Assembly (NCBI RefSeq): GCF_000013045.1
Contig: NC_007677.1
Location: 1,054,001 to 1,118,000 of the forward strand
Direction: 5' to 3'
Length of the DNA: 64,000 bases
Source: Salinibacter ruber DSM 13855
GTDB lineage: Bacteria > Bacteroidota > Rhodothermia > Rhodothermales > Salinibacteraceae
The notes under the pieces were generated by a model. The model was given only the letters and a program-made list of their open reading frames with translations, had not been told where the DNA came from and ran no database searches. The translations under genes were made by a program, and so were the position numbers. This document shows, in pieces, positions 33,613-42,999 of this stretch (positions are counted from its first letter, which is position 1; every line of letters starts with the position of its first letter).

Positions 33613-35796
33613 ATGGACGCGTCTTCTCCCTCATCGATCGACACGAGCCCGCAGAATCGGGGCGACCGTCACATTCAACCCGGCAAGCCCTATCCACGGG
33701 GGGCCACGTGGGACGGCATCGGCGTCAACTTTGCCCTGCACAGCGCCCACGCCGACCGGGTTGAACTCCTTCTCTTCGAGGACGCGGACGACCGCGAGCC
33801 GGCCGTCACGTTCGAGCTGCCGGAGCACACCGGCCCCATCTGGCACGGCTACGTCACGAACGTGCGTCCCGGACAGCTCTATGGATATCGCGTCTACGGC
33901 CCCTACGACCCGGCGAACGGGCACCGGTTCAACCCCAACAAGGTCCTGCTCGACCCCTACGCGAAGGCCATCGGGCGCCCCCTCCGCTGGGACGACAGCC
34001 TCTTCGGCTACGACGTGGACGCCGAGGAGGACGACCGTTCGTTCAACACGCAGGACAGTGCCCCCCACGCCCCCCTCGCGGCGGTGGTGGAGGAGACCTT
34101 CGCCTGGGGCAACGACCAGTCCCCCGAGATTCCGTGGCAGGACACCCTCATCTACGAGACGCACGTGAAAGGGATGACGCAGAAGCACCCGGACGTGCCC
34201 GAACGGCTGCGGGGCACGTACCTGGGCATGGCGTCCGAGCCGGTGCTCGATCACCTCAAGACCCTCGGCGTCACCACGGTGCAGCTCCTGCCGGTGCACG
34301 CCAAGCTGCATCGCCGGGAGTTGCTCCGGAAGGGCCTGCGGGAATATTGGGGCTACAACACCCTTTCCTACTTCGCGCCGGAGCCGGAGTACGCCGCCAA
34401 CGGCCCGACGAGCGCGGTGCGTGACTTCAAGATGATGGTCCGTGCCCTGCACGACGCGGGGCTTGAGGTCATCATCGACGTCGTTTACAACCACACCTGC
34501 GAGGGCAACCAGATGGGCCCCACGCTCTCGTGGCGGGGCGTTGACAACCGGACCTACTACAAGCTCAACCCCGACGACGAGCGCTACTACATGGACTACA
34601 CCGGGACGGGCAATACGCTCGACCCCGGCGACTCGTACGTCCTGCAGATGATCATGGACAGCCTGCGCTACTGGGTGACGGAGATGCACGTCGACGGCTT
34701 CCGGTTCGACCTGGCCTCGGCCCTGGCGCGCGAGCTGTACGACGTGGACATGCTCGGCTCCTTCTTCAAGGTGGTGCAGCAGGACCCGGTGCTGAGCCAG
34801 GTCAAGCTCATTGCGGAACCCTGGGACGTGGGGCCCGGCGGCTACCAGGTCGGGTCGTTCCCGTGGCAGTGGGCCGAGTGGAACGGCCGCTACCGCGACA
34901 CCATCCGCCGCTTTTGGCGGGGCGACCGCGGGATGAACGGGGACGTGGCCACCCGGGTCACCGGCTCCAGCGACCTCTACGAGCGGTCGGGCCGCCGCCC
35001 GTTCGCGTCCATCAACTTCGTGACGGCCCACGACGGCTTCACGCTGCAGGACCTCGTGAGCTACGAGCGGAAGCACAACGAGGAGAACAAGGAGGGCAAC
35101 GAGGACGGCCACGACGACAACCACTCGACGAACTGCGGGGTGGAAGGCCCCACCAACGATCCGGAGGTGATCGAGCGCCGGGAGCGGCGCAAGCGCAGCA
35201 TCATGGCCACGCTCCTGCTGTCACAGGGCGTGCCCATGATCTTGGGCGGGGATGAGCTGTCCCACACCCGTCGGGGCAACAACAATCCCTACTGCCAGGA
35301 CAACGAGATCAGCTGGTACGACTGGGACCTCGACGAACGCGAGCAGAAGTTCCTCGAGTTCGTCCAGCGACTCACGGCGTTCCGGCAGGAGCATCCGAGC
35401 TTCCGGCGACGGCATTTTCTGGACCCGGTCGACGAGTCGGACGGCTCCGGCGACGTGCTCTGGTGGCACCCCGACGGCCGTGAGATCACGGACGGAGACT
35501 GGCACGACGAGGGCCTGCACGCCTTCGGGTACCTGCTCCGTGGGCAGAACCTGGCGCCCGACTCGCAGGGCCGGCCCCGGACCGACGACTCGTTCCTGGT
35601 GCTCATGAACCAGGGCGGGGCGCCGGTCGAGGTTGAGGTGCCGGCGGAAACCAACGAACTCGACGATGTGCACTGCGCGGCCTGGCACGTGGTGCCGGAG
35701 CTGGCCGAGTTTCTGGACGATCCGGGCCCCGTTGAGCCGGGGGGCGTCCTGACGCTGCGTCCCCATCGACTCCTGGTCCTTCGGGCGGAGCCGTAG
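33613..35796 (+). CDS. glgX: Glycogen debranching enzyme, GlgX/isoamylase type
   Basis: 727-residue GH13_11 enzyme that hydrolyses alpha-1,6 branches. CBM48-like N-terminus ([24 protein letters not shown]), then the barrel with [16 protein letters not shown], nucleophile Asp366 in [13 protein letters not shown], Glu402 in [16 protein letters not shown] and Asp in [14 protein letters not shown]. It is divergent from glgE across about 270 bp, so a shared control region between 33344 and 33612 is likely. Together with the three minus-strand genes it makes a cluster for both building and breaking alpha-glucan. The ATG at 33613 gives the expected N-terminus; the open frame upstream is Cys-rich and non-homologous in look. 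Confidence 0.94.
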
Positions 35797-35935
35797 TGCG
35801 CGCCGGCGCCCCCTCGTGTCGTTCCGCTCCACAGAACACACCCCGACCGCGCGCCTTCTTGTTCATGCGCGGCCGGGCGCCGCCGCCCCGGGTCCGACGG
35901 ACTTCGCTGCGCTCCCCAACCGGTCTCCGCACGGC

Positions 35936-37034
35936 ATGTCCGACTCCCTCTCCCGCCGAGAGTTTCTTGAGCGTGCGGGCACCACCGTGGCCGCGTCGAC
36001 GGTGGGCGTTCCGTCCGTTCTCCTTCCTGATCGAGACGAGGTCCTCGGGGTGGCCCTCTGTGGCCTCGGCAACTACGCCAAGACCCAACTGGCCCCCGGG
36101 CTCCAGAAGACCGAGCACTGCGCGCTGCGCGGCATTGTCACCGGCTCTCCGGAGAAGATTCCGAGGTGGCAGCGGCGGTACGACATTCCGGACTCGAACG
36201 TCTACAGCTACGACACGCTGCCCGAGATTTCCAACAACGCCGCCCTCGACGTGGTGTATGTCGTGACCCCGCCGGGCTTCCATGCGCGGGACGCCATCAA
36301 GGCCGCCGAGGCCGGGAAGCACGTCTGGTGCGAGAAGCCGATGGCCATGACCGCGAGCGAGTGTCGCGCCGTGATCGATGCCGCCGAGAAGAATGGGGTC
36401 CAGCTCACCGTCGGCTACCGGATGCAGCACGAGCCCAACACCCAAACCATCATCCGGTACGGCGAAGACGAGACGTACGGCGCGGTCACCTCCGTCGCGA
36501 CCGCCGCGGGCTACGACGGAGCGCCCCCCGATCCGGACGACTGGCGTCGGGACGCCGAGCGTGGGGGCGGTGCGCTCTACGACATGGGCGTCTACCCCAT
36601 CAACGCGGCCCGCTACGCCACCGGCATGGAGCCGGTTGCCGTGACGGGGCGTACCTGGTCCGAGCGCGACGAGATCTACAGCGAGGTGCCCGAGTTTGCG
36701 GAGTTTACCCTGGAGTTTCCGGGGGGAGTGACGGCGACGGGAACGGCCAGCTTCGGCGCGTCGATGAACTACCTCAAGGTGGAGTGCACGGAGGGGGGGG
36801 TATCAGCTGCGCCCCTTTCAGGCCTACTCCGGCGTGCAGGGGACGACCAGCGACGGGACCCGGTTGCCCCCCGACCCGACCGACCAGCAGGCCCGGCAGA
36901 TGGACAACGACGCCCGAGCCATCAAAAACGACAATGCCCCCTTGGTCCCGGGCAGGGAGGGGCTCGCCGACGTTCGGGTTGTGCGGGCCATCATGGAATC
37001 CTCCGCGAACGACGGAGCAAGAATGGAGCTTTAA
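35936..37034 (+). pseudogene. Gfo/Idh/MocA-family oxidoreductase, frameshifted at a G8 run
   Basis: Starts MSDSLSRREFLERAGTTVAAS, a twin-arginine-like export signal, followed by an NAD(P)-binding Rossmann domain (VALCGLGNYAKTQLAPGL) and the signature CEKPMAMTASE. The frame is interrupted at the eight-G run at 36793-36800: removing one G restores YQLRPFQAYSGVQG and an in-frame end ...ESSANDGARMEL at 37034, for a normal 365-residue protein. Unshifted, translation continues as unrelated sequence to 37213. The length (1099 bases) is exactly one base too many. This may be a real null mutation, a slippage-prone switch or a sequencing error. The likely substrate is a sugar or polyol. Confidence 0.85.
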
Positions 37035-37367
37035 GGCACGATGCGATGGGCCGGCCGGTCCATCGCGTCCGGAATCCATCGCGTCCGGAAAACGCGTCTG
37101 CCCCCGTCCGGCGCCGTTGCGCCTGGCTCTTCTCTTCGGTCCGACCCACATCTCTTTCTGGCCGGAGCAGGCCGGATCGAATCGTCGAGGGCCCGTTGTC
37201 GATTCCGCGCTGAAAGCGCTGCACCCGGCCGGATCCGGCGAAACGCTTCTGGTGTCGCCAAATAGTGAAGATTTGAAGAACCAAACGGCGGCAAGTTATA
37301 AACAACATCTTCACGTGCCTAACACACAAACGGCTCATGAGTGGTTGGGCCGCACTTCTCGCCGGAC
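37035..37367 (+). promoter_or_regulatory. AT-rich leader before the 631-aa unknown gene
   Basis: No gene is supported here. The stretch 37257-37320 is notably AT-rich against its surroundings and includes TATAAA near 37299. It is the probable promoter area for the gene starting at 37368; exact elements are not assignable. Confidence 0.3.
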
Positions 37368-39263
37368 ATGCACTTCAATCGTCGTCTACTACGAGCCATG
37401 CGATACACGTTTTTCGGACACCTCTGCGGACAACTCTGTTCGGACTGTCAGGAGGACCTGGCACACGCTACCCTTCGGCTCTACCGACCCAAAGACGGGG
37501 ACGATCAAGTCGTCGCCCGTGCGACCGCGGACACCAAACACACGCATCAGATTCTCGATGCGGCGGAGGCAGAACAAAAGGCGGATCGTCTCTTGGTCGA
37601 GGCGGACCTCGATTCGGAGGGCCGCTTCAACGTTGTGCTCGACGAAGAGGTCGACTACGACGGGGACGCCATCGAGGTAGACGTGTACCTCGAATCGGTC
37701 CCCGGGATGCCGGAGGGCACGGAGGCAGGCCCGCTGCAGGTGAGTATCACCACCCTCCAGCCCCAGTGGCGCAAGGGCGAAGAGGGCGCTCGATTTGGCT
37801 GGGAGTACTGCATTCCCGAACGGTTCTGGTGCCAGGTTCGTGGGCAGTTCGGGGCCTGGACGATCTGCGGGGACGTAACCCTCTGCGAGACGGGCGCCCC
37901 CGTGGAGGGCGTGACGGTCATTGCGTTCGATCGGGACTGGATTCAGGACGATGAGGTCGGGATTGCGACCACCGACGGAAATGGCCGCTTTCGCATCGAC
38001 TATTTGCAGCAGGACTTCGAGCCCGGCACCGTCATCGACGTTGAACTGGTGGGCGGCCCCGACCTGTATTTTCGGGTGGAGACGCCCGCCGGGCAGCCGC
38101 TCCTCTCCGAAGACCCGTCTGCGGGACGAAGGAGCAGCCGGGAGAATGCCGGGCCCTGCTTCTGTGTGGACCTCTGCCTCGACGAGGAGCCCGACGACCC
38201 GGATCCTGAAGTCTACCCGGCCTTCACCCAAGTGGGCGGGTACGACTTTCAGACGGACATCGACAGCGGCCCGGCAGGCACGGGGGAGACCGTACGCGGC
38301 GGACGGGCCTTCCATCGCACCCTCCGACTGAATGGGATCATGTCGAAGACCCTAAACGGAAACCCCCTGGAGTACAAGTTTCAGTACCGAGAGCGGGGGG
38401 CGTCGTCCTGGAAGAACGTGACGCCCTCTCAGCTCCGCAAGATGAAGATTGGGACGCTCGAGAAGGTGGAAACTTCCGTCTCGCCCCCGCGCATCCGCAC
38501 CAAAGATTACGTCGTGGGGGGAACACCTGATTCCGATGAAGTGGGTGTCACTTTCAACGGGAACTGGATCCCGATGCCCCAAAAGTCGGGGATTTTTAGT
38601 GGGGATGGGTCGTTCGTGCCGAATCACAACCAGATCCAACTGGACTCCCGGACGCTGGCGACGTTTACGCCCGCGGTCGACCTAACCGGCATCGACGCGG
38701 GGGAGAGTGCCGAGGCCCCCTCTGGGGTCTCCCTCGTGCAGAACAAGCATTTCGAGATCAAGATGCTCGTCCGAGAAAACCCGCCCAACTCGAGTCCCAG
38801 CGCGTCCACGGAGGTGGGTCACCTCGAAAACATTGCGATCAACAATCGGCTCTACGACTATGTCCGTCACCCCAACTGGATGGGGGAGCCGGTCGACGAC
38901 GGGCTTGCCGTGGCGATGGTCAATCTCAAAGAGCTGGGAAGCGGCGGGTGCGAGGGCATCGAGGACGCCCTCAATGTACGCTTCACCGCGGCGCATCCGA
39001 ACCTGGGAAACGTCGGGATCACGGTGGAGGGGCCCGGCGGCCCGTACCGCACGTCTCCCACGCCCAGTGACCCGAATGTGAACGGGAGTCGGGACGAAAA
39101 CCTGTACGGATCGATCGATTTCCAAAACATCTCCGGGGGCAAAAAAGTCGAGGAGCTGAAAAACTGCGCGTACGTCGTGACCCTATCGGTGGGGGTGTTG
39201 CTCACAAACGGCGATCGCGTTCCGAGCAACCGACACGACCAGATCGCCTTTTGCAAAGGGTAG
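37368..39263 (+). CDS. Unknown protein with transthyretin/carboxypeptidase-regulatory-like domain
   Basis: Protein of about 631 residues; function not recognised. The N-terminal segment has FFGHLCGQLCSDCQEDL, a Cys cluster followed by LRLYRP as in small beta-sandwich modules. The second part has FGAWTICGDVTLCETGAPVE, where GDVTLCETGAPVEGV reads like a transthyretin/CarboxypepD_reg repeat. CFCVDLCLDEEPDDPDP is another Cys-rich joint. The C-terminal half is beta-rich with long polar loops. No signal peptide or membrane segment is visible, so despite the extracellular-looking modules there is no Sec export route. The start could also be the ATG at 37398 (MRYTFFGHLCG). It is intact and has coding-like composition. 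Similar multi-domain proteins exist in other Bacteroidota as far as I recall, without a known role. Confidence 0.75.
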   Translation: MHFNRRLLRAMRYTFFGHLCGQLCSDCQEDLAHATLRLYRPKDGDDQVVARATADTKHTHQILDAAEAEQKADRLLVEADLDSEGRFNVVLDEEVDYDGDAIEVDVYLESVPGMPEGTEAGPLQVSITTLQPQWRKGEEGARFGWEYCIPERFWCQVRGQFGAWTICGDVTLCETGAPVEGVTVIAFDRDWIQDDEVGIATTDGNGRFRIDYLQQDFEPGTVIDVELVGGPDLYFRVETPAGQPLLSEDPSAGRRSSRENAGPCFCVDLCLDEEPDDPDPEVYPAFTQVGGYDFQTDIDSGPAGTGETVRGGRAFHRTLRLNGIMSKTLNGNPLEYKFQYRERGASSWKNVTPSQLRKMKIGTLEKVETSVSPPRIRTKDYVVGGTPDSDEVGVTFNGNWIPMPQKSGIFSGDGSFVPNHNQIQLDSRTLATFTPAVDLTGIDAGESAEAPSGVSLVQNKHFEIKMLVRENPPNSSPSASTEVGHLENIAINNRLYDYVRHPNWMGEPVDDGLAVAMVNLKELGSGGCEGIEDALNVRFTAAHPNLGNVGITVEGPGGPYRTSPTPSDPNVNGSRDENLYGSIDFQNISGGKKVEELKNCAYVVTLSVGVLLTNGDRVPSNRHDQIAFCKG

Positions 39264-39424
39264 GGCTTCAGAGAGGGGGCGGAGTCCCGGGCGGACGGTG
39301 GCCCGTTCAGGGGCGAATCGGACGGGATGGAAGCGGGGCGGCCGGCACCGGTCCCTTGCGACTGGGGACGCTCGTTCTCACCTTGTGTCCGGTTGTTATC
39401 ATTTTCGATGAGCGTCCCCACCCC

Positions 39425-42190
39425 ATGCCGTTCCCGCTCCGCCGCCTCTCGATCGTGCTCGCCGTCCTGTTCGTGGCGGGCCCCGCCGGGGCCCAGCCCA
39501 CCGACCTGACGCCGGAGCGCTTCTCGTTTGACCCGGACCTCGCCTACGACAGCAGCATCCCCGCGCCCGAGGACGCGCTCGGCTACGAAATGGGCACGCA
39601 GTTTACCCTCCACGCCGACGCGGTGGACTACCTGCGCACGCTGGCCGGCGCGTCCGACCGGGTTCGGATGGGCACCTACGGCGAGACCTACGAGGACCGC
39701 ACGCTGCCCTATCTTGTCGTTACGAGCGCACAAAACCAGGGGCGTCTCGATCAGCTCAAGCGCAACAGCCGGCGCCTTTCGGACCCGGCGAGCCTGTCGG
39801 CGTCGGCCCGAGACCGGCTTCTCCAGAACCAGCCGGTGTTCGTCTCCTACAGCTACAACATCCACGGCAACGAGCCGGCCTCGACCGAGGCGGCCCTGCA
39901 GGTGGCCTATCGCCTCGCCGCGGCGCGGGACGACCGCACCCGGGCGCTCCTGCAAGACGCGGTCGTGATCATGTACCCGACCGTCAACCCCGACGGCCGC
40001 GACCGCTACGTCTACTGGGCCCGCTCGATGCAACGGGCGCAGGTGGCCACCGAGCCGGCCGACATCGTCCACGACGAGCCGTGGCCGCAGGGGCGGACCA
40101 ATCACTACTGGTTCGACCTCAACCGCGACTGGGTGTGGAACGTGCACCCCGAGATGGAGGGCCTGACCGGCGTGTACCAGGAGTTCATGCCGCAGGTGCA
40201 CGCCGACTACCACGAGCAGGGATACAACGACCACTACTTCACCATGCCCGGCACCACGCCGCGCAACCCGATCCTGCCGGACCGCTACGTGGCCTGGGCC
40301 GACACCTTCGGGCGCGCCAACATTGAGGCGTTCGACCAGAACCAGGTCGCCTACTTCACCCGCGAGGCGTTCGACTTCTTCTACCCCAGCTACGGATCGT
40401 CCTACCCTAGCGTGATGGGGGGCATCGGCATGCTGACCGAGCAGGCCGGCATCGGGGCGGGGCGGGCCGTCGAGAACAACGACGGCTACACGCTCACCTT
40501 CCGCCAGCGCGTGCACGACCACTACGCCACCTCGCTGGCGACGATCGAGGCGTCCGTCCAGAACCGGCGGGCACTTCTAGAATATGACCTCAATGCCCAC
40601 TCGCAGGCAAGCAACACGATCGAGACCGCCGCCTACGTCTTTCCCGACGACCGGGGAACCGGCTACCTCTACGACGTGCTCGACATGCTCCGCCACCACG
40701 GCGTCGAGGTGGCGCGGACGACGGAAGCCACCCGCCTCGACAATGCGCTCGACTACCGCACCGGCGAGCGAGCGGATCGTCGGGTGGAGGCCGGGGCGTA
40801 CGTCGTGCCCACCGACCAGCCGCGCCACCTTTTCGTGAACACGCTCCTGCAGCGCCAGGTGGCGTTTCAGGACTCGGTCATGTACGACATGTCCACGTGG
40901 TCGGCCCCGCTGGCCTACAACCTGGAGGCGTACAGCACGCGCGAGTCGGTCGGGGCCGAAACGGAGGTCGTAGAGACGGCCCCCACGCCGGACAGCGGCG
41001 TCACGAATCCCGATGCGCGGTACGCATTCGTCGTGGAGTGGAACCAACGGCATGCCCCGCGCGCCCTGTCGGCGCTCTGGGAGGCCGGGTACCGGGTGCG
41101 GGCGGCCCACGAGCCGTTCAGCACCGGGCCCCGATCGTTCGGGGCCGGCTCCCTCGTCGTTCTTTTGGGGCGCAATCCGGACCACGACGACCCGGCGGCC
41201 GACATGCGGCGCATCGCGTCGGAGGCCGGCGTTGAGATCGTCGGGCTGGATACCGGTCGCATGGCGGAGGGACCCGACCTGGGGTCGGCCGACAATGCCC
41301 CGGTGAAGCCCCCCGAGGTGGGCATGCTCGTCGACCAGCCCTTCTCCACCTACACGAGCGGACAGATCTGGTACCTGTTCGACCAGGAGACCGAGCTGCC
41401 CATCACCCGCATCCGAACGTCCAACCTGGAGGAGTCGGCCACCGGGGAGGGGCGGTACGCCCGCTACGGGAAGGCCTCCCTCGACGCGCTCGACGTGCTC
41501 ATCCTGCCCGGCGGCTACGGGCTCGACGCGGTCTTCGACTCCACCCGCGTCGACGCCCTGCGTGAGTGGGTGCGCGACGGCGGTACGCTCGTCGGCACCG
41601 AAGAGAGTGCCCGGTTCCTGACGGCGGACGGATCCGGCCTTACGGGCGTGGAGGCACTGCCGGACACGACCGATAGTCCCATCGGGCCGTACACCTCGTA
41701 CGCGGCGCGGGACGATTCAAGCGGGCTCGACTATGTGCCCGGCGCGGCCCTCACCGGCCGCCTCGACGCCACCCATCCGCTCACCTACGGGATTGGGGAC
41801 GCGGTCTACACGCTGAAATACGGCGTCTCTGGCCTGGAGCCGAGCCCAGACCTCCAGACGGCCGGCCACTACGCGAGGGACACCGAGGAGCTGCTCGTGA
41901 GCGGCTACGCTTCGCAGGCGAACCTGCAACAGATGGCGGGCAAGTCCTTTGCCGGCACGGTCGCGATGGGGGACGGGCGGGTCGTCTTCCTCGTCGACAA
42001 TACGCAATGCCAATCAGGGGTTGAGATAAACCACGTCGCCGCAAGCGGCTTGAAGAAAGGTGCAACCAACATCTTTCTGATAAGCCGCCCTTGGCGACAT
42101 GGACACTACCTCTACGCTCATTCGGATCTACCTGTTCATCTGTCAGCGCTACCGGGGACGGCTCGCCGAAGCGGCCCAGCGGCAGAGTAA
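39425..42190 (+). CDS. M14-family zinc carboxypeptidase, 3' end replaced by IS insertion
   Basis: Secreted metallopeptidase. The signal peptide (MPFPLRRLSIVLAVLFVAGPAGAQ) is followed by an M14 catalytic domain with zinc ligands in YNIHGNEPASTE (HxxE) and a downstream HADYHEQGYNDHYF. There is also a large C-terminal region with a glutamine-amidotransferase-like stretch (DVLILPGGYGLDAV). Residues 1-860 are native. At 42007 the reading frame enters an IS element and continues for 61 foreign residues to 42190, overlapping the transposase. The lost native tail (25 residues) is found intact beyond the element at 43005-43080; the undisrupted protein would be 885 residues. The catalytic part is complete, so activity may survive. 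Confidence 0.88.
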   Translation: MPFPLRRLSIVLAVLFVAGPAGAQPTDLTPERFSFDPDLAYDSSIPAPEDALGYEMGTQFTLHADAVDYLRTLAGASDRVRMGTYGETYEDRTLPYLVVTSAQNQGRLDQLKRNSRRLSDPASLSASARDRLLQNQPVFVSYSYNIHGNEPASTEAALQVAYRLAAARDDRTRALLQDAVVIMYPTVNPDGRDRYVYWARSMQRAQVATEPADIVHDEPWPQGRTNHYWFDLNRDWVWNVHPEMEGLTGVYQEFMPQVHADYHEQGYNDHYFTMPGTTPRNPILPDRYVAWADTFGRANIEAFDQNQVAYFTREAFDFFYPSYGSSYPSVMGGIGMLTEQAGIGAGRAVENNDGYTLTFRQRVHDHYATSLATIEASVQNRRALLEYDLNAHSQASNTIETAAYVFPDDRGTGYLYDVLDMLRHHGVEVARTTEATRLDNALDYRTGERADRRVEAGAYVVPTDQPRHLFVNTLLQRQVAFQDSVMYDMSTWSAPLAYNLEAYSTRESVGAETEVVETAPTPDSGVTNPDARYAFVVEWNQRHAPRALSALWEAGYRVRAAHEPFSTGPRSFGAGSLVVLLGRNPDHDDPAADMRRIASEAGVEIVGLDTGRMAEGPDLGSADNAPVKPPEVGMLVDQPFSTYTSGQIWYLFDQETELPITRIRTSNLEESATGEGRYARYGKASLDALDVLILPGGYGLDAVFDSTRVDALREWVRDGGTLVGTEESARFLTADGSGLTGVEALPDTTDSPIGPYTSYAARDDSSGLDYVPGAALTGRLDATHPLTYGIGDAVYTLKYGVSGLEPSPDLQTAGHYARDTEELLVSGYASQANLQQMAGKSFAGTVAMGDGRVVFLVDNTQCQSGVEINHVAASGLKKGATNIFLISRPWRHGHYLYAHSDLPVHLSALPGTARRSGPAAE
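42007..42026 (+). repeat. Left terminal inverted repeat of the IS
   Basis: 20 bases beginning ATGCCAATCAGGGG. It pairs with the right end at 42980-42999 with a single mismatch at position 5. Confidence 0.92.
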
Positions 42191-42992
42191 CAACGACCAG
42201 CCGGATTTTACCGACGAGGAGGTGCTGACAATTTACGTCTTCGGACTCATCAAAAAGCGGACGACCATCAGCGAGATTCACAAGTACGTCGAGGACCACT
42301 TTTCGGAATGGTTTCCCGAACTGCCTTCCTATCAGAGCTACAACCGACGCCTGAATCGGCTGAGCGCCGTTTTTGCTCCGTTGGTTGAAGAAGCCCTCTC
42401 AGAAGTTGGTTGCGAAAAGATCCGCGACGGGAGGATTCGCATCGCCGATTCGATGCCGATTATGCTGGCGAAAGGGCAGCGGGCCTCTCAGGCAATGGTG
42501 GCCTCCGATCGACTCGCATCGGTCGGTTACTGCTCCTCGAAGGATACCTTCTATCACGGCGTGAAACTCCATCTTGTCGTGGAACGCAGATCTGAGGAGC
42601 TTCCAGTCCCGGAGCGGGCCGGGCTGACGCCTGGAAGCGAAAACGACCTTCGCGCTCTCCGGCGGGTATTGCCGTTCATCGAAGATGGAGTCCTTTGCGG
42701 AGATAAGGCCTACTGCGACGGGCCGCTCAAAGAGCGACTTGCCGAAGACCAGAACCTCGATCTACTGACTCCGGTCAAGAGGGAAAAAGGCCAGAAGACC
42801 CTTCCAGCGGCAGATAAGCTGTTTTCCGAGGCTGTAAGTCGGCTTCGGCAGCCGATCGAGTCGCTTTTCAACTGGATCAACGAGAAAACCGGCATTCAGC
42901 GGGCCTCGAAGGTGCGTTCTTACCGGGGACTGTTGGTTCACGCGTTTGGTCGGCTCGCCGCCGCGATGCTCCTTCTCGCTCTCAACCCCTGA
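42099..42992 (+). CDS. DDE transposase, IS982-like
   Basis: 297-residue transposase filling the IS. The probable DDE triad is Asp117 (RIADSMPI), Asp202 (LCGDKAYCDG) and Glu254 (QPIESLFNWINEKTG). The N-terminal part has LPSYQSYNRRLNRL, resembling IS982-family enzymes, and GVKLHLVV plus LTPGSENDLRAL fit the same group; an IS4/IS5-superfamily relative cannot be excluded. The gene appears intact. Its 5' end overlaps the tail of the disrupted peptidase frame. Confidence 0.88.
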   Translation: MDTTSTLIRIYLFICQRYRGRLAEAAQRQSNNDQPDFTDEEVLTIYVFGLIKKRTTISEIHKYVEDHFSEWFPELPSYQSYNRRLNRLSAVFAPLVEEALSEVGCEKIRDGRIRIADSMPIMLAKGQRASQAMVASDRLASVGYCSSKDTFYHGVKLHLVVERRSEELPVPERAGLTPGSENDLRALRRVLPFIEDGVLCGDKAYCDGPLKERLAEDQNLDLLTPVKREKGQKTLPAADKLFSEAVSRLRQPIESLFNWINEKTGIQRASKVRSYRGLLVHAFGRLAAAMLLLALNP

Positions 42993-42999
42993 TTCGCAT
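42980..42999 (-). repeat. Right terminal inverted repeat of the IS
   Basis: Mirror image of 42007-42026. It includes the transposase stop codon (TGA at 42990). Confidence 0.92.

What the first reader, a model, noticed from the sequence alone, without database searches (positions are those of the whole stretch)
37368..39263. 631-residue Cys-patterned protein of unknown function with transthyretin-like modules and no export signal
It is intact, coding-like and unlike neighbours. Three Cys clusters (HLCGQLCSDC, TICGDVTLC, CFCVDLC) frame beta-sandwich-like segments that normally occur outside the cell, yet no signal peptide or membrane helix is present. It lies in an accessory zone between a broken oxidoreductase and an IS-hit peptidase. 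It might be a cargo or accessory of a non-Sec export system, or a cytosolic metal/disulfide scaffold.
Basis: partly seen in the sequence, partly recalled or inferred. Interest (0 to 1): 0.55.

Follow-up and report, generated by a model that had tools for sequence, protein, structure and literature searches.

The report
Signal-less cysteine-paired beta-domain protein family
This is an intact gene for a modular protein with no ordinary export tag, whose front half recurs with different back halves and whose cysteines tend to appear and vanish in pairs, which hints at a protein that ends up outside the cell by an unusual route; what it does there is not known.

Summary
The gene is real and under purifying selection; its start is better placed at 37398 (621 aa). 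It belongs to an unnamed family found patchily in Bacteroidota: 18 of 394 sampled genomes (16 with the window-type protein, two with the front half only). A distant copy lies on Salinibacter plasmid pSR47. No hydrophobic signal segment was seen in 18 of 18 N-termini (hydropathy), and no gene neighbour is general (5 of 25 neighbourhoods at most).

The N-domain plus one TTR/CarboxypepD_reg-like module form an N-module (residues 1-262). It also occurs alone, with an unrelated C-part, and in front of a 2370-aa teneurin-like protein on a Streptomyces plasmid. Its TTR half resembles modules of TcA-type and some enzyme proteins. Cysteines tend to be lost in pairs, as disulfides would.

Carriers have an eCIS marker more often than others (11 of 18 versus 65 of 376), but 13 of 13 Salinibacter genomes lack the sheath, and in the two clusters inspected the gene lies outside. 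An eCIS route is thus unlikely here, as far as two markers tell. Structure prediction failed (pLDDT 30 and 38). Function is unproven.

The parts
37398..39263 (+). the gene: 621-aa signal-less protein, stop included; best-supported start ATG 37398
   Evidence: dN/dS 0.08-0.15 within Salinibacter
   Evidence: 37368 Met is Ile in two of four Salinibacter copies and its Arg-Arg pair is not kept in those two; distant relatives align from 37398; no hydrophobic stretch
37398..37847 (+). N-domain, residues 1-150, first half of the N-module; holds C10, C14, C17, C138, C145
   Evidence: alignments A6 and A10; no convincing PDB relative
37848..38183 (+). transthyretin/CarboxypepD_reg-like module, residues 151-262, second half of the N-module; holds C157, C163, C254, C256, C260
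   Evidence: Pfam hit in 18 of 18 members; stretch of lipoxygenase PDB 5ek8, E 5.2e-7
38205..39260 (+). C-part, residues 270-621, no convincing Pfam or PDB match; holds C518, C590, C619
   Evidence: window-type C-part in 17 of 19 N-module copies of the phylum sample
35805..39481 (+). accessory stretch between two conserved genes, holding this gene and an oxidoreductase-like stretch; 205 bp in family-negative Salinibacter G005
   Evidence: locus L112, compared with L013, L014, L015

Best explanation
A modular protein of the extracellular kind, made without a recognisable Sec, Tat or lipoprotein signal. SHOWN: a two-domain N-module (N-domain plus TTR-like module, residues 1-262) recurs with different C-terminal partners (a 350-aa C-part here; an unrelated 461-aa C-part; a teneurin-like YD-repeat protein; nothing). 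Several of its cysteines are present or absent in pairs. The gene has no general neighbour and is patchily distributed, including on a plasmid. INFERRED: the N-module is a rigid, disulfide-braced presenting or docking unit, and the C-part is the part that acts or binds. The pairs proposed are C10-C138, C163-C260, C14/C17 with C157/C256, and C145-C254, with C518-C590 in the C-part. The protein folds in the cytosol and is oxidised after release through cell lysis or a non-Sec device. In Salinibacter that route is not an eCIS with the Pvc16 and sheath families tested, so lysis or an unidentified route is the default. Likeliest job: a released binding or antagonism factor whose C-part sets the target.
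For: Full-length family. No hydrophobic N-terminus in 18 of 18 rows cut at the family start. N-module alone in G228 and with an unrelated C-part in G124; that C-part does not score against the C-part profile even at E 100 with filters off, and its best blastp match to another C-part is E 0.079 over 32 residues. N-module at the front of a 2370-aa protein with TEN_YD-shell E 3.8e-43 and a separate teneurin TTR domain further on. Paired Cys loss: C163/C260 18 both, 4 neither, 0 mixed of 22; C10/C138 7 both, 20 neither, 1 mixed of 28. TTR modules near the N-terminus of four TcA-type proteins. No general neighbour. Plasmid-borne copy.
Against: No experimental localisation. Signal absence was judged by hydropathy and alignment, not by a trained predictor; upstream extensions of the relatives were not examined that way. 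Few independent Cys-loss events, and C14/C17/C157/C256 could be a four-Cys metal site. Conservation next to GTPase genes in one genus also fits a resident cytosolic protein. TTR-like modules are common and do not by themselves mean export; the best-scoring TTR-only relative is in a hydrolase-like protein, not a TcA. Structure prediction failed. Of the C-terminal arrangements seen, all but the window type are single cases.
Confidence: 0.42

Rival explanations
1. A resident cytosolic protein: the Cys set is structural or binds metal, and the modules scaffold an intracellular process.
For: No signal in 18 of 18; no general secretion neighbour; CxxC at C14/C17, and four Cys (14, 17, 157, 256) that tend to be lost together; next to GTPase-like genes in four genomes of one genus (G110, G249, G222, G538).
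Against: C163/C260 (22 and 28 sequences) are never mixed and C10/C138 are mixed once in 28, as for disulfides; N-module fused to a YD-repeat protein; related TTR modules in TcA-type proteins.
Confidence: 0.27
2. A cargo or accessory of extracellular contractile injection systems in the genomes that have them, orphaned in Salinibacter.
For: Pvc16 in 11 of 18 family-positive versus 65 of 376 family-negative genomes, p 7e-5; 6 of 7 versus 15 of 143 in a sample of one genus; 3 of 3 versus 28 of 83 in one family; stratified p 1.2e-6 ignoring relatedness. Two of five carriers in the order outside Salinibacter pass the sheath cut-off (G048, G438). At least one aromatic residue in the first eight in 16 of 18, a trait given for eCIS toxins in PMC11297309 (passages).
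Against: 0 of 13 Salinibacter genomes have the sheath. The gene lies about 12 kb (G139) and 32 kb (G538) from the marker with unrelated genes between; in the other ten Pvc16-positive carriers of the phylum sample it is on another contig (nine) or 1.3 Mb away (G249), though most are drafts. N-termini are less hydrophilic than the quoted eCIS leader of Pdp1 (hydropathy sums -18.3 to +16.1; -36.9 quoted). Seven Pvc16-negative carriers of the phylum sample also lack the sheath. In that genus two carriers that are 90% identical are both negative and two that are 92% identical both positive, and genome size was not controlled.
Confidence: 0.15
3. An antibacterial or anti-eukaryote effector whose C-part is toxic, released by lysis.
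For: C-part swapping and YD-repeat fusion; patchy distribution and a plasmid-borne copy.
Against: The C-part is conserved across genera. It has no toxin match in Pfam, and the whole proteins have none in PADLOC (0 of 18) or PHROGs (two single weak hits, E 0.006-0.008, a minor tail protein and an unnamed family). No neighbour recurs in the way an immunity gene would.
Confidence: 0.11
4. A conventionally exported protein whose signal was missed through a wrong start.
For: Extracellular-type module.
Against: The start is fixed by alignment to distant relatives; the window's extension has no hydrophobic core and its Arg-Arg pair is not conserved.
Confidence: 0.05

Closest known systems
Transthyretin-like / CarboxypepD_reg domains (Pfam PF01060, PF13620)
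   Same: residues about 155-207 match; 17 and 18 of 18 members hit these models
   Different: one module in a 621-aa protein with two other unassigned parts; known members are usually exported (recalled)
TcA subunits of Tc toxins (TcA_TcB_BD, ABC_toxin_N, Neuraminidase-like, VRP1)
   Same: four such proteins (L084-L087) carry one or two TTR modules near the N-terminus that match the family profile
   Different: no TcA core, channel or TcB-binding domain here; the N-domain profile A6 finds nothing in them; their TTR modules lack the Cys set (by eye)
PETase-like hydrolase with N-terminal TTR module (L088)
   Same: best TTR-only match, E 5.5e-17
   Different: hydrolase body (PF12740 E 6.2e-11); no N-domain
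Teneurin-like YD-repeat/RHS protein (Streptomyces sp. NBC_01450 plasmid, L083)
   Same: whole N-module, 33-36% identical, at the N-terminus
   Different: followed by NHL and YD shell rather than the 350-aa C-part; most of the Cys lost
Lipoxygenase PDB 5ek8 and an animal-haem-peroxidase-type protein (L090)
   Same: N-terminal stretch matches the TTR module
   Different: enzyme bodies unrelated (An_peroxidase E 1.4e-20 in L090)
eCIS cargo (AlgoCIS Cgo1/Cgo2; eCIS-associated toxins)
   Same: no Sec signal; co-occurrence of genomes
   Different: no DUF4157 among the Pfam hits, less polar N-terminus, not in the cluster where seen, machine markers absent in Salinibacter

Membership tests
TTR-like / CarboxypepD_reg domain | match to the domain profile | tested here: met
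   18 of 18 members hit PF13620 at E 0.1 or better, best 1.9e-7; window protein alone below the gathering score
eCIS cargo | genome encodes an eCIS | tested here: not met
   for this organism: sheath PF04984 in 0 of 13 Salinibacter genomes (10 of them at least 90% complete and at most 5% contaminated); Pvc16 absent in G000, G001, G006, G009, G010
eCIS cargo | gene within about ten genes of the core cluster, or DUF4157 | tested here: not met
   no eCIS markers in Salinibacter; about 12 and 32 kb from Pvc16 in the two genomes inspected; DUF4157 not among the Pfam hits of 18 members
eCIS cargo | polar disordered N-terminal leader with aromatic residues (PMC11297309) | tested here: inconclusive
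   hydropathy sums of the first 35 residues -18.3 to +16.1 versus -36.9 quoted for Pdp1; aromatic residue in the first eight in 16 of 18; disorder not computed
Tc toxin TcA subunit | TcA core and TcB-binding domains | tested here: not met
   no such Pfam hit in 18 members
Teneurin-like / RHS protein | YD-repeat shell | tested here: not met
   none in the window protein
Sec or lipoprotein substrate | N-terminal hydrophobic core or lipobox | tested here: not met
   maximum 15-residue hydropathy 0.46 (window), at most 1.39 in 18 members; hydropathy only
Tat substrate | conserved twin arginine before a hydrophobic core | tested here: not met
   Arg-Arg only in the doubtful extension and not kept in two of four species
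Disulfide-bonded extracytoplasmic protein | cysteines oxidised in pairs | tested here: inconclusive
   pairwise co-loss; no redox data
Anti-phage defence protein | PADLOC profile | tested here: not met
   0 of 18 members

The most novel reading that the evidence does not exclude
The N-module is a previously unnamed trafficking module for proteins that leave the cell without Sec. It is placed in front of exchangeable C-terminal parts (the 350-aa C-part, other domains, YD-repeat shells), shares its TTR half with TcA-type proteins, and is handled by contractile or lytic release machinery in genomes that have it.
Probability: 0.18. Interest if true: 0.72.

Novelty: new variant of a known kind. Interest (0 to 1): 0.45.

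Why it matters
If the protein is outside the cell, it marks an export route that does not use Sec in a hypersaline bacterium and in scattered relatives, and the N-module would be a handle for finding its other cargo. The Cys pairing gives a direct, cheap test of compartment. If it is cytosolic, it is an unusual case of extracellular-type modules with about ten conserved cysteines kept inside the cell.

Tried and rejected
Guilt by association: 24 relative neighbourhoods plus the window were compared with a crude greedy ORF caller, which missed the family gene in L019. The most widespread neighbour cluster is in 5 of 25 neighbourhoods; most clusters are confined to one genus, with a few (sizes 2-5) shared between distant genomes. 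A Pfam tally of 138 neighbour proteins, first 25 of 163 families shown, is led by GTPases of housekeeping type. Rejected as a guide to function.

Virus origin: no relative in viral contigs in three scans; none in phages with one relative as query; no PHROG hit for the window protein, two single weak hits in other members.

Matches dropped before counts: L009 and L010 (other proteins over short stretches); eight genomes and five with only the TTR module or a short stretch; L091 (match elsewhere, in a protein without the module). TcA-type, hydrolase-like and peroxidase-like proteins are counted as sharing one module, not as family members.

NCBIfam: none for the window protein at 0.001; six of 18 members hit the NikL model (best 5.7e-5) and one hydroxyisourate hydrolase (4.1e-4), both probably through the TTR fold.

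Structure: whole protein, pLDDT 30.2, pTM 0.22; N-module, pLDDT 38.5, pTM 0.39. Only two sequences were admissible. No fold search was made, since such models give meaningless matches.

eCIS cargo in Salinibacter: rejected on absence of two markers. The association in other genomes is kept as circumstantial; relatedness and genome size are not removed. The seven family-positive genomes without Pvc16 in the phylum sample also lack the sheath. Of the five family-positive relatives in the order outside Salinibacter, G048 and G438 pass the sheath cut-off, G057 has a match below it, G026 and G045 have none.

Literature: 'Salinibacter ruber' with 'transthyretin' gave no paper. eCIS with transthyretin or carboxypeptidase regulatory-like gave seven papers, none about this family by title and abstract start. 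PMC8894135, PMC11297309 and PMC8213781 were seen as passages only. Listings only: PMC6425310 on teneurins, the lipoxygenase papers, for the rest. I make no wider claim that the family is absent from print.

Full report
WHERE IT IS. The window is contig 1, 1054001-1118000, of a two-contig genome (3,551,823 and 35,505 bases). The closest named contig found is Salinibacter altiplanensis. The sizes agree with Salinibacter ruber DSM 13855 as I recall them; no call names the strain.

THE GENE. The frame 37341-39263 is open. Relatives align from the Met at 37398 with the pattern M-x-Y-x-F-x-G-x-L-x-x-x-L-C-x-D-C in most. I therefore take 621 aa. dN/dS is 0.077-0.146 among four Salinibacter species and 0.185-0.223 against a 51% identical relative. 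It is a single copy in its genome.

DISTRIBUTION. In 60 relatives (own genome included), 8 carry true relatives (10 of 60 had any match; two dropped). In the order, 9 of 114 carry long matches (14 of 114 any match). In the phylum sample, 18 of 394 carry long matches (26 of 394 any match); in two of these, G124 and G228, only the front half is shared. Within one distant genus, 7 of 150. Two copies are visibly decayed: G048 (frameshift) and one of two in G102 (two stops). A 28% identical copy covering 96% of the query lies on S. ruber RM158 plasmid pSR47, annotated hypothetical. In family-negative Salinibacter G005 the two flanking conserved genes are 205 bp apart, whereas in the window about 3.7 kb lies between them; the S. 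altiplanensis locus has this gene but not the oxidoreductase-like stretch beside it. So the gene sits in an accessory slot and comes or goes independently of that neighbour. The direction, gain or loss, was not resolved.

ARCHITECTURE. In the window protein Pfam sees only the TTR/CarboxypepD_reg-like module at about residues 155-207, below cut-off. The profile of that module finds one solved structure with confidence, a stretch of a lipoxygenase (5ek8, E 5.2e-7); TTR-fold proteins score only weakly (TTR ancestor 0.34, TTR-52 0.72), no better than unrelated chains. The N-domain and C-part profiles find nothing convincing in the PDB, and the C-part nothing convincing in Pfam. Nine of 18 members have a weak Big_6 (Ig-like) hit, in L078 within the N-domain. 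There is no PADLOC hit, no PHROG hit for the window protein, and no NCBIfam hit above cut-off for it.

THE N-MODULE IS A UNIT. In the last phylum search, 35 of 389 genomes matched the N-module profile; 18 genomes (19 copies) match both halves. Seventeen of these copies are followed by the window-type C-part, one by an unrelated 461-aa part (G124) and one by a stop (G228). Outside the phylum, a Streptomyces plasmid encodes the N-module at the start of a 2370-aa protein with teneurin-type TTR, FN-plug, NHL and YD-shell domains. Proteins with only the TTR half: the best is a PETase-like hydrolase (L088); then come four TcA-type proteins, L084 from another Salinibacter species and L085-L087 (TcA_TcB_BD E 1e-108 to 1e-119 in three of them; ABC_toxin_N, neuraminidase-like and VRP1-type models in L084, L085 and L087, the first two of these in L086), a fragment with a stop (G080) and an unassigned 614-aa protein (L089). 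A cyanobacterial plasmid protein annotated neuraminidase-like also matches, and so does a haloarchaeal protein whose gene abuts one so annotated. An animal-haem-peroxidase-type protein (L090) follows. Many weaker matches were not followed.

CYSTEINES. In 22 diverse N-modules, C163 and C260 are both present in 18 and both absent in 4, never mixed; in 28 full-length sequences 26 both, 2 neither. In those 28, C10 and C138 are both present in 7, both absent in 20, mixed in 1; C17 and C157 both in 25, neither in 2, mixed in 1; C14 and C256 both in 27, neither in 1; C145, C254, C518 and C590 are in all 28. L017 lacks just C17 and C157 of the foursome, whereas L083 keeps C17 and C256 and lacks C14 and C157, so the partners within C14/C17/C157/C256 are undecided; L078 keeps only C254. 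C619 also tracks C10 and C138 to a degree. The simplest reading is disulfides; a metal site for the foursome is possible. The Fisher values of those calls treat related sequences as independent and are only descriptive.

EXPORT. No signal-like segment was seen in 18 of 18 N-termini by hydropathy, rows cut at the family start. The eCIS marker Pvc16_N was found in 76 of 394 genomes: 11 of 18 family-positive against 65 of 376 negative, p 7.2e-5. In a sample of one genus 6 of 7 against 15 of 143; within one family, 86 genomes, 3 of 3 against 28 of 83. Two further carriers in the order, G048 and G438, pass the sheath cut-off. Against this: Salinibacter carriers have neither Pvc16 (G000, G006, G010) nor sheath (0 of 13 in the genus). 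The two close same-contig cases have the gene about 12 and 32 kb from the marker with unrelated genes between. Carriers in that genus fall into fewer lineages than genomes. Of the eCIS toxin hallmarks reported in PMC11297309 and PMC8213781 (passages), cluster position and DUF4157 are not met, the polar leader is at best weak, and the aromatic trait is met in 16 of 18. So the machine link is a lead for other hosts, not an explanation here.

VERDICT. Ordinary in that the module is a known fold family; unusual in the combination of a signal-less protein, paired cysteines and a front half that recurs with different back halves. The mechanism proposed, release by lysis or a non-Sec device and oxidation outside, is inference.

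Noticed in passing
window 42007-42997: An insertion of about 990 bp with 12-bp terminal inverted repeats (42014-42025 and 42981-42992) and a 297-aa ORF interrupts the 3' end of the downstream peptidase-like gene; the eight other Salinibacter loci compared lack it.
   Followed up: partly
window 35793-37309: The oxidoreductase-like stretch upstream lacks about 337 bp in G010 (window 36530-36866) and does not align at all in S. altiplanensis, which has about 746 bp of other sequence there: a decaying accessory gene.
   Followed up: partly
L084 (another Salinibacter genome, G009): A 3361-aa TcA-type protein (TcA_TcB_BD E 1.4e-108) with two N-terminal TTR modules occurs in this genus.
   Followed up: partly
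L085:455-9919: A 3154-aa TcA-type protein also carries ribosomal L7/L12 C-terminal-domain matches (PF00542 E 3.3e-37, two stretches), an odd pairing.
   Followed up: no
L082:10001-10204 (pSR47): The annotated gene of the plasmid homologue starts 204 bp downstream of the start that aligns with the family, so the public annotation is probably truncated.
   Followed up: yes
L154:5440-7407 (Salinirubellus plasmid): In a haloarchaeon a 655-aa ORF with a TTR module directly abuts a gene annotated neuraminidase-like: perhaps a TcA-type protein split in two genes.
   Followed up: no
L156:8001-8204 (Haladaptatus plasmid): A weak TTR-module match (E 0.01) lies in a stretch without an annotated gene.
   Followed up: no
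L083:7938-15050: Teneurin-like YD-repeat protein on a Streptomyces plasmid record that carries almost no annotation in the collection used.
   Followed up: partly
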